Positions 58,129 through 60,336 of a stretch of DNA of 64,000 nt are shown one piece after another. The notes below the pieces were generated by a model. It was given only the letters and a program-made list of their open reading frames with translations. It made no database searches and was not told the DNA's origin. The position numbers and the translations under genes are program-made. The DNA is taken from NCBI RefSeq assembly GCF_002140915.1, contig NZ_NGKU01000001.1, positions 914,697-978,696 of the forward strand, written 5' to 3'. Source of the stretch: Candidatus Enterococcus testudinis (GTDB lineage Bacteria > Bacillota > Bacilli > Lactobacillales > Enterococcaceae). How positions within the stretch are numbered: position 1 is the first letter of the stretch; every line of letters starts with the position of its first letter.

Positions 58129-58991
58129 GAAGAATATTGATTACTGGCGAAAACAGTTATATTGGTACCTCGTTGGTAAAATGGATGTCTGATTTCAAAG
58201 ATGAATATCAGTTTGATACAATTAGTGTCAAAGGTAATTCATGGAGGTCTTTAGATTTTTCAGAATTTGATGCAATAATTCATTTGGCTGCGATAGTTCA
58301 TGTAAAAGAAAAGAATGATGATTTATATTTTAAAGTGAATAGAGACTTAGCAGTTGAGATTGCAAACAAAGCTAGAGAATACAGAGTCGAACAATTTATT
58401 TTTCTTAGTACGATGTCAGTATTTGGAATGGAGAAAGGCAAAGTGTCCTCCAAAACCAATATAAATCCTAAGACTGCCTATGGTAAATCAAAATATGAGG
58501 CGGAAAATGAAATTTTAAAATTAGAAAATGAACATTTCAAGGTAGCGATACTACGCCCCCCTATGATTTATGGGCCAAATTCAGTAGGAAATTATAGTAA
58601 ATTATCTAAACTTGCAAAAAGACTTCCAATTTTCCCAAAAATAAATAATAAAAGAAGTATGTTATATATCAATAATTTATGCTGTTTTATCAAGTTGATT
58701 TTGGATTACCAACTTCATGGAACATTCCATCCGCAAAATAGATATTTGGTAAATACCTCTGACTTAGTAAAGGAAATCAGATTATCAAATGGTAAAAAAG
58801 TTGTGATGGTGCATGGCATGGATATGTTAATTAAGTGGTCTTCCAACCTTTTTAGTATACTTAATAAAATATTTGGTGATCTCTATTATGATAAGTCAAC
58901 TTTAGGTTATCCTGATACGGAGTATAATGGGATTAGATTTGACTATCAAGAACGAAATTTTGCTAAAAGTATTGAGGAGAGTGAGAAATGA
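58125..58991 (+). CDS. NAD-dependent epimerase/reductase (4-keto-sugar reductase candidate)
   Basis: 288 residues, SDR fold: N-terminal ILITGENSYIGTSL, active-site Ser in FLSTMSVFG, and TAYGKSKYEAE with the YxxxK pair. Resembles the WbpV/WreQ group that reduces UDP-4-keto-6-deoxy-GlcNAc to UDP-D-FucNAc or UDP-D-QuiNAc, and sits next to a small initiating transferase as those do. Product not certain. GTG start in a GTGA overlap with the preceding gene; visibly AT-rich from here on. Confidence 0.82.
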   Translation: MRRILITGENSYIGTSLVKWMSDFKDEYQFDTISVKGNSWRSLDFSEFDAIIHLAAIVHVKEKNDDLYFKVNRDLAVEIANKAREYRVEQFIFLSTMSVFGMEKGKVSSKTNINPKTAYGKSKYEAENEILKLENEHFKVAILRPPMIYGPNSVGNYSKLSKLAKRLPIFPKINNKRSMLYINNLCCFIKLILDYQLHGTFHPQNRYLVNTSDLVKEIRLSNGKKVVMVHGMDMLIKWSSNLFSILNKIFGDLYYDKSTLGYPDTEYNGIRFDYQERNFAKSIEESEK

Positions 58992-59857
58992 AGAGAGACA
59001 TATTGTTTATGTGTCAATTTTTTTACCCAGAGTATGTTTCTTCTGCGCTCTTACCATATCAAACAGCGTTGGGTTTGAGAAAAAAAAAAATGACTGTTGA
59101 TGTTCTCTGTGGATTTCCTAAAGAATATGTAAATCAAGGAGAAGAAGTAGCTAAAAAAGAGATATTTAATGGAATAAATATCATTAGGAAAAAATACATA
59201 CAGTTAGGTAGAAAAAATTTTTTTAGTCGGTTAATCAATTATTTTTCTTTTACCTTTGTGATGATGATGAATCTGTACAAATGTAGAAGCTATAAAGTTA
59301 TTGTCGTATATTCAAATCCTCCTATTTTACCAATTGTTTCTATAGTTGCAAAGATTATATTTGATTGTAAAATAGTATTCATTGCATATGATCTTTATCC
59401 TGAAATTGCTGAGAAAACAAAAACAATAAGTAAAAATAGTTCGATATCGAAAATCATGCAAATTATAAATAAACAATTATTTAGACGAGTTGACAAAGTT
59501 GTAGCTCTATCAAATGAGATGAAGAAATTTATTGTTTCCGAAAGACAGATCTCTGAAAATAAAGTAGAAGTTATTGCAAATTGGGCAACAGAAGACGAAC
59601 ATATATGCAGTAGTCTTTCACATGAATTTAATCAAATAAGGAAAGAATATGATTTAATTGTTTCTTATTTTGGAAACATGGGAACAGCTCAGGACATAGA
59701 TACAATTTTACAAACAATTGCAAATAAAAAAATTCCCAAAGATAGAATAGCTTTTCTTTTTGCTGGACATGGTAATAAAAGAGGTCAAATTAGAAATGTG
59801 ATAGAAAAAAACAGTCTATCTAATTGTTATTTATTTGAATATTCTAGATGTGTATAA
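58988..59857 (+). pseudogene. Glycosyltransferase (GT4, WbuB-like), 5' part, artificially truncated
   Basis: N-terminal part of a GT4 glycosyltransferase: ILFMCQFFYPEYVSSALLPY start, then FIAYDLYPEIAE and a first Rossmann domain followed by the start of the second (VSYFGNMGTAQDID). Genuine sequence ends at 59843; the last codons (SRCV) and the TAA at 59855-59857 come from a 19-bp Nextera mosaic end. Deleting 125 bp (59844-59968) joins it in frame to the downstream part, giving 407 residues, normal for the family. Next to UDP-L-FucNAc genes, it is a good candidate L-FucNAc transferase as for WbuB. The gene is probably intact in the organism. Confidence 0.88.
59740..59843 (+). repeat. 104-bp direct duplication, copy 1
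   Basis: Identical to 59865-59968. The two copies flank 21 bases, of which 19 are the Tn5 mosaic end. Coding sequence inside the glycosyltransferase gene. Reads as a chimeric read or contig join, not a biological repeat. Confidence 0.95.
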
Positions 59858-59864
59858 GAGACAG
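59846..59864 (+). other. Nextera/Tn5 mosaic-end adapter sequence (library artefact)
   Basis: AGATGTGTATAAGAGACAG is exactly the 19-bp engineered Tn5 mosaic end present in Nextera-type libraries. It is preceded by two extra bases (CT) and followed directly by the second copy of the 104-bp duplication. Its translation yields the tell-tale MCIRDR start seen in contaminated predictions. Confidence 0.97.
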
Positions 59865-60336
59865 AGATAGAATAGCTTTTCTTTTTGCTGGACATGGTAA
59901 TAAAAGAGGTCAAATTAGAAATGTGATAGAAAAAAACAGTCTATCTAATTGTTATTTATTTGAATATTTAAGAGAAAATGAATTCAATAATGCATTATCG
60001 ATTACAGATTATTTTATTGTTTCTCTTGAAAGTGACTTATCAGGATTAGCCGTACCAAGCAAGACTTATAGTTATTATCAGGCAGGAAAGCCGGTAATTG
60101 CTATTATGAATAGAGAATCTGATATCTACAAAGAAATCTCTGATAACTACGCAGGGCTCTCTGTTGAAAACGGTGAATCTGAGAAAATTGTTGAACATCT
60201 TTTAGAAGTTTTGAATGAACCTAAAAAATTAGAGACTATGAGCTATAATATGAAGGAGAAAATTAAACCAATATATACAAGAAGTAATCAAATTGAAAAG
60301 TATCGGAAGATGCTTTCTAATCTATTGGAGGATTAA
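59848..60336 (+). pseudogene. Glycosyltransferase (GT4, WbuB-like), 3' part with false adapter-derived start
   Basis: C-terminal part of the split glycosyltransferase. The apparent ATG at 59848 and the first six residues (MCIRDR) are encoded by the mosaic end; there is no ribosome site. Genuine coding is 59865-60336, containing the GT4 nucleotide-sugar region (GLAVPSKTYSYYQAGKPVIA, with the acidic residue in SLESDLSG). Should be merged with 58988-59843 after removing the duplication. Stop is 2 bases before the next gene. Confidence 0.9.
59865..59968 (+). repeat. 104-bp direct duplication, copy 2
   Basis: Identical to 59740-59843. From 59969 the sequence continues normally with the rest of the glycosyltransferase gene. 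Confidence 0.95.

What the first reader, a model, noticed from the sequence alone, without database searches (positions are those of the whole stretch)
59740..59968. Nextera mosaic end and 104-bp duplication split a capsule glycosyltransferase: an assembly artefact
59846-59864 is exactly AGATGTGTATAAGAGACAG, the engineered 19-bp Tn5 mosaic end of Nextera libraries. It is flanked by identical 104-bp copies (59740-59843 and 59865-59968). Deleting 125 bp (59844-59968) puts the two glycosyltransferase frames back in register and yields one 407-residue GT4 protein. The predicted protein beginning MCIRDR is therefore adapter-derived. Anyone reading this locus as a pseudogene, a phase-variable repeat or a gene fission would be misled.
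Basis: partly seen in the sequence, partly recalled or inferred. Interest (0 to 1): 0.9.

Follow-up and report, generated by a model that had tools for sequence, protein, structure and literature searches.

The report
Mate-pair adapter left in genome assembly
A leftover piece of laboratory sequencing adapter sits between two copies of the same stretch of a sugar-transferase gene in this assembly, so the apparent broken gene is most likely a computer assembly error and not biology.

Summary
In detail: 59846-59864 is exactly the 19-bp Tn5 mosaic end (ME), between identical 104-bp copies, splitting a GT4 glycosyltransferase in a capsule/EPS-like locus of an Enterococcus-like genome. It is an artefact. 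The same genome holds 42 exact ME copies in 27 blocks; 15 of 27 are the complete 38-bp palindrome printed in the literature as a circularisation ("ring") adapter. None of the 42 has six or more bases of an ordinary Nextera paired-end tail; 34 of 42 are joined to their mirror image. ME copies sampled from public contigs show the opposite: 203 of 260 with tails, 0 of 260 mirrored. Nine of 27 blocks have exact flanking repeats, as expected when overlapping ends or a circularised fragment are joined through adapter. In three relatives both gene pieces lie in one open frame (406-408 aa); the five other same-genus genomes searched lack ME; another genome of the family has 206 copies. Which software step made the join cannot be told without reads. 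The value is data quality; biological interest is low.

The parts
59740..59843 (+). first copy of the 104-bp direct repeat (sequence of the glycosyltransferase gene)
59844..59845 (+). CT: read as what is left of the mirror half of the 38-bp junction (that half both begins and ends with CT, so which end it comes from is open)
   Evidence: graded truncation of the half at other blocks of the genome; inference
59846..59864 (+). 19-bp engineered Tn5 mosaic end, exact
59865..59968 (+). second, identical copy of the 104-bp repeat
58988..59857 (+). open frame holding the N-terminal part of a GT4 glycosyltransferase; its last residues are adapter-coded
59848..60336 (+). open frame beginning MCIRDR: its start codon lies in the adapter; the rest is the C-terminal part of the same glycosyltransferase

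Best explanation
This is an assembly artefact. DNA for the genome was prepared with a mate-pair type kit in which fragments are closed into circles through a 38-bp palindromic junction made of two mosaic ends. Reads that still held part of the junction entered assembly or gap closing. At this place the ends of two neighbouring pieces of sequence overlapped by 104 bp, or a short circularised 104-bp fragment was walked round once. The adapter stood between the two copies, so the overlap was not merged. The result is repeat, remnant of the junction (CT plus 19 bp), repeat, which breaks the reading frame and gives a false gene start in the adapter. Shown: the adapter sequence, the exact repeats, the genome-wide spread and the junction form at other blocks. 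Inferred: the library type, the origin of the CT and the software step.
For: Own genome: 42 exact ME copies, 45 with up to 2 mismatches, 0 for the reversed control pattern. 27 blocks, 15 of 27 the full 38-bp junction, the other 12 of 19-37 bp; exact flanking repeats of 9 bp or more at 9 of 27 (68, 42, 42, 27, 103, 86, 95, 35 and 9 bp), and at one more a 767-bp repeat displaced by 3 bases. The 38-mer is printed as a 'biotin labeled ring adapter' in PMC7357533 (passage); biotinylated junction adapters, circularisation and NxTrim trimming in Nextera Mate Pair work are described in PMC6298255 (passages). Control: copies with six or more bases of paired-end tail (tail letters recalled) are 0 of 42 here, 0 of 35 in stretches of the related genome G102, 97 of 133 in genome contigs and 106 of 127 in viral contigs; mirror-joined copies are 34 of 42, 30 of 35, 0 of 133 and 0 of 127. 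Same-genus genomes: 0 of 5 others with ME. The two gene pieces, searched apart, fall next to each other in one open frame in G019 (408 aa), G041 (406 aa) and G002 (407 aa). N runs as scaffolders leave them, four of exactly 100, lie in 5 of the 13 twenty-kb stretches taken round blocks.
Against: 18 of 27 blocks have no exact repeat abutting them (one of the 18 is the block with the displaced 767-bp repeat), so duplication is not a constant companion. A pure model of walking round a short local circle does not explain those; gap closing through adapter-tailed ends could. At this site only about 21 of 38 junction bases remain, so the junction reading of this one block rests on the other blocks; 8 of 42 ME copies are not mirror-joined by the six-base test. 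8 of the 13 twenty-kb stretches show no N run. No reads were seen. One ME copy each also occurs in G096, G107, G123 and G146; I did not check their form.
Confidence: 0.95

Rival explanations
1. Ordinary Nextera paired-end adapter read-through, left by incomplete trimming, was assembled into the contig.
For: The ME is the same 19-mer; this is the common form in the sampled public contigs (97 of 133 and 106 of 127 copies with tails), where 121 of 133 and 125 of 127 copies lie within 100 bases of an end of the fetched locus.
Against: No paired-end tail of six or more bases beside any of 42 copies here, 34 of 42 mirror-joined, 15 of 27 blocks exactly the 38-bp junction. Paired-end read-through is not expected to give mirror-joined MEs (inference; 0 of 260 in the samples).
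Confidence: 0.04
2. A real insertion of an engineered Tn5 transposon, or a natural Tn5/IS50-like element, in the strain.
For: The ME is a transposase end; one of 27 blocks has 9-bp flanking repeats, the size of a Tn5 target duplication (9-bp rule recalled).
Against: No match to the Tn5 transposase DNA-binding family in the genome (PF14706, 0 of 1; of 14 control genomes it rings in E. coli alone). No natural outside end with up to 2 mismatches (letters recalled). Nothing lies between the two halves of the full junctions; repeats of 27-103 bp are not target duplications.
Confidence: 0.005
3. A true tandem duplication or phase-variable repeat of 104 bp in the gene, with the adapter placed between real copies by the assembler.
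For: The copies are identical and adjacent; surface polysaccharide loci do vary (recalled).
Against: Eight other blocks elsewhere in the genome show the same repeat-adapter-repeat shape with other lengths. The relative's locus L276 has 1 repeated 14-mer against 91 in the own locus L275, and three relatives have both pieces in one open frame.
Confidence: 0.01

Closest known systems
Nextera Mate Pair type junction (ring) adapter, 38 bp
   Same: 15 of 27 blocks in this genome are letter for letter the sequence printed in PMC7357533
   Different: at the finding's own site only CT plus one 19-bp half is left
Nextera paired-end adapter contamination of public contigs
   Same: same 19-bp mosaic end
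   Different: that form mostly carries kit tails (203 of 260 sampled copies) and lies within 100 bases of an end of the fetched locus (246 of 260); this one has no tails and is internal, and most copies in this genome are mirror-joined
GT4 glycosyltransferase, WcaI/WbuB-like
   Same: the N piece matches PF13439 and the C piece PF00534, both over the Pfam cut-off; both pieces match NF007640 (WcaI family) in consecutive parts, 61-251 and 260-406 of 411
   Different: both NF007640 scores are far below its curated cut-off (40.1 and 44.6 against 276 bits), so the finer name is not established

Membership tests
Mate-pair junction adapter contamination | two mosaic ends joined head to head in 38 bp | tested here: inconclusive
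   met at 15 of 27 blocks of the genome; at 59844-59864 only 21 bases remain
Mate-pair junction adapter contamination | no paired-end kit tail beside the mosaic end | tested here: met
   0 of 42 copies with six or more tail bases (tail letters recalled)
Mate-pair junction adapter contamination | present in reads of a mate-pair library of this strain | not testable with these tools
   no reads or library records on hand
Nextera paired-end adapter contamination | kit tail beside the mosaic end | tested here: not met
   0 of 42
Tn5/IS50 element or engineered Tn5 transposon | transposase or cargo between inverted ends | tested here: not met
   no PF14706 match in the genome; nothing between the halves of the full junctions
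Tn5/IS50 element or engineered Tn5 transposon | 9-bp target duplication | tested here: not met
   104 bp here; 9 bp at 1 of 27 blocks
GT4 glycosyltransferase | N-terminal Glyco_transf_4 and C-terminal Glycos_transf_1 domains in one chain | tested here: inconclusive
   each domain found in its own piece; both pieces in one open frame in relatives G019, G041 and G002

The most novel reading that the evidence does not exclude
The strain has a real, recent 104-bp tandem duplication inside this glycosyltransferase gene (a reversible off-switch for surface sugar), and the adapter merely marks where the assembler stumbled on it.
Probability: 0.01. Interest if true: 0.3.

Novelty: not a real feature. 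Interest (0 to 1): 0.12.

Why it matters
The assembly is the one held for its species in the genome collection used here, and its 27 adapter blocks can mimic pseudogenes, duplications and new short proteins. One other genome of the family carries 206 copies. Screens for gene fission, phase variation or new small proteins that use these records may pick up false positives; the 38-bp junction is a simple filter.

Tried and rejected
Rejected: natural Tn5 element, ordinary paired-end read-through, chance. A fixed overlap length left by a k-mer assembler was considered and rejected, since the repeats have many lengths: 9, 27, 35, 42, 42, 68, 86, 95, 103.

Led nowhere: PDB sequence searches with both gene pieces gave 0 matches each. 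Paper searches for adapter-coded peptides: MCIRDR 0 papers; MCIRDS, DVYKRQ and two tail peptides together 4 papers, all four for DVYKRQ alone, none on adapter contamination by title; seen as listing only, two of the abstract beginnings describe transposon-based insertion methods. Searches were seen as listings, apart from the passages of three papers read; of the 25 papers, 12 were listed and none was opened. The first 16S search used the wrong stretch, mostly flank, and was repeated with the right one. The 38-mer in viral contigs gave 7 stretches of 6 contigs, 0 of 7 with an abutting repeat of 6 bp or more.

Full report
What is there. Window 59846-59864 is AGATGTGTATAAGAGACAG with no mismatch, the only match in 64 kb with up to three mismatches. 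It is flanked by two identical 104-bp copies, 59740-59843 and 59865-59968, with CT at 59844-59845. Two open frames meet there: 58988-59857 and 59848-60336; the second begins MCIRDR inside the adapter.

Where it lies. The window is part of a 3,199,475-bp contig of a three-contig, 3.2-Mb genome. Its 16S gene is 99.7% identical to one in a record named Enterococcus gallinarum and 96.2% to one named E. faecalis in the plasmid collection, so an Enterococcus-like organism; the species is not fixed by this. The neighbouring genes look like a capsule or exopolysaccharide locus (my reading of the translations; no family search was made on them).

Genome scale. The 19-mer occurs 42 times exactly in this genome and 45 times with up to two mismatches; the reversed control pattern occurs 0 times. 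The 42 exact copies lie in 21 loci and form 27 blocks. 15 of 27 are the full 38-bp palindrome CTGTCTCTTATACACATCTAGATGTGTATAAGAGACAG, 4 are a bare 19 bp and 8 lie between. The finding's block counts as 22 bases, or 21 if its first T is given to the genome. At other blocks the half beside the genome lacks one to three bases (1051403, 1878189, 2157943), so trimming is graded.

Which adapter. The 38-mer is printed in PMC7357533 as the 'biotin labeled ring adapter' used to circularise fragments (passage). PMC6298255 describes tagmentation with biotinylated junction adapters, circularisation and trimming in Nextera Mate Pair libraries (passages), and PMC6256694 the trimming of junction adapters for bacterial mate-pair assemblies (passage). 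As control I classed the ME copies of two public collections. With at least six bases of a paired-end kit tail (tail letters recalled): 0 of 42 in the own genome, 0 of 35 in the G102 stretches, 97 of 133 in genome contigs, 106 of 127 in viral contigs. With at least six bases of the mirrored end: 34 of 42, 30 of 35, 0 of 133 and 0 of 127. In the last two sets 27 and 17 copies had fewer than six outer bases and no tail of six. The junction itself is not absent elsewhere: 7 stretches of 6 viral contigs hold it.

Repeats. 9 of 27 blocks have an exact direct repeat abutting both sides: 68, 42, 42, 27, 103 (the finding; 104 with the ambiguous base), 86, 95, 35 and 9 bp. The other 18 of 27 have none abutting; one of these has a 767-bp repeat displaced by three bases, and at some the short pieces between junctions are copies of sequence nearby. 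The rate at random window positions is 2 of 20,000. N runs, four of exactly 100, occur in 5 of the 13 twenty-kb stretches. I infer scaffolding and gap closing with mate-pair reads that still held junction. Whether the 104 bp are overlapping ends or one short circularised fragment cannot be told without reads.

Relatives. Of 196 genomes searched (own included), 6 have the exact 19-mer: the own genome 42, G102 206, and G096, G107, G123 and G146 one each (form not checked); the five other same-genus genomes have none. In G102, 16 stretches with 35 of its 206 copies gave 23 blocks, 11 of 23 full junctions, 4 of 23 with flanking repeats (75, 17, 210, 20 bp). The same kind of contamination therefore sits in another genome of the family.

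The gene. I searched the pieces apart. The N piece has Glyco_transf_4 and the C piece Glycos_transf_1, both over the Pfam cut-off. They match consecutive parts of the WcaI family model, 61-251 and 260-406 of 411, both below its cut-off. The N piece is found in 9 of 59 genomes and the C piece in 6 of 59, own genome included. In G019, G041 and G002 both pieces lie side by side in one open frame of 408, 406 and 407 aa. Intact copies therefore exist. The closest, G019, is 61% and 48% identical to the two pieces; G002, of the same genus, only 28% and 25%.

Verdict. It is not a biological feature; the interest lies in cleaning public data.

Noticed in passing
genome G102 (same family), e.g. L312-L327: 206 exact mosaic ends in one 3.4-Mb genome; 30 of the 35 copies examined are mirror-joined: the same contamination in a related species.
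   Followed up: partly
G000:C1:1618670-1618841 (L262) and 984728-984842 (L273): Short fragments (31, 46 and 57 bp) between junctions, about 34 bp from N runs; several are copies of sequence nearby.
   Followed up: partly
G000:C1:181760-183005 and 601183-601563: 16S rRNA matches in pieces, beside two full-length ones elsewhere, which suggests badly assembled rRNA operons.
   Followed up: no
L030, L062, L083, L099: Streptomyces and Actinoplanes scaffolds (titles with Doro1_scaffold) in which a mosaic end lies within four bases of an N run.
   Followed up: no
plasmid record NZ_CP116511.1: A 484-kb E. gallinarum record filed as plasmid carries a full-length 16S match, 99.7% to the window's genome; perhaps a chromosomal piece.
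   Followed up: no
L329, L331 (one contig), L332: The full 38-bp junction also lies inside viral contigs, without abutting repeats.
   Followed up: partly
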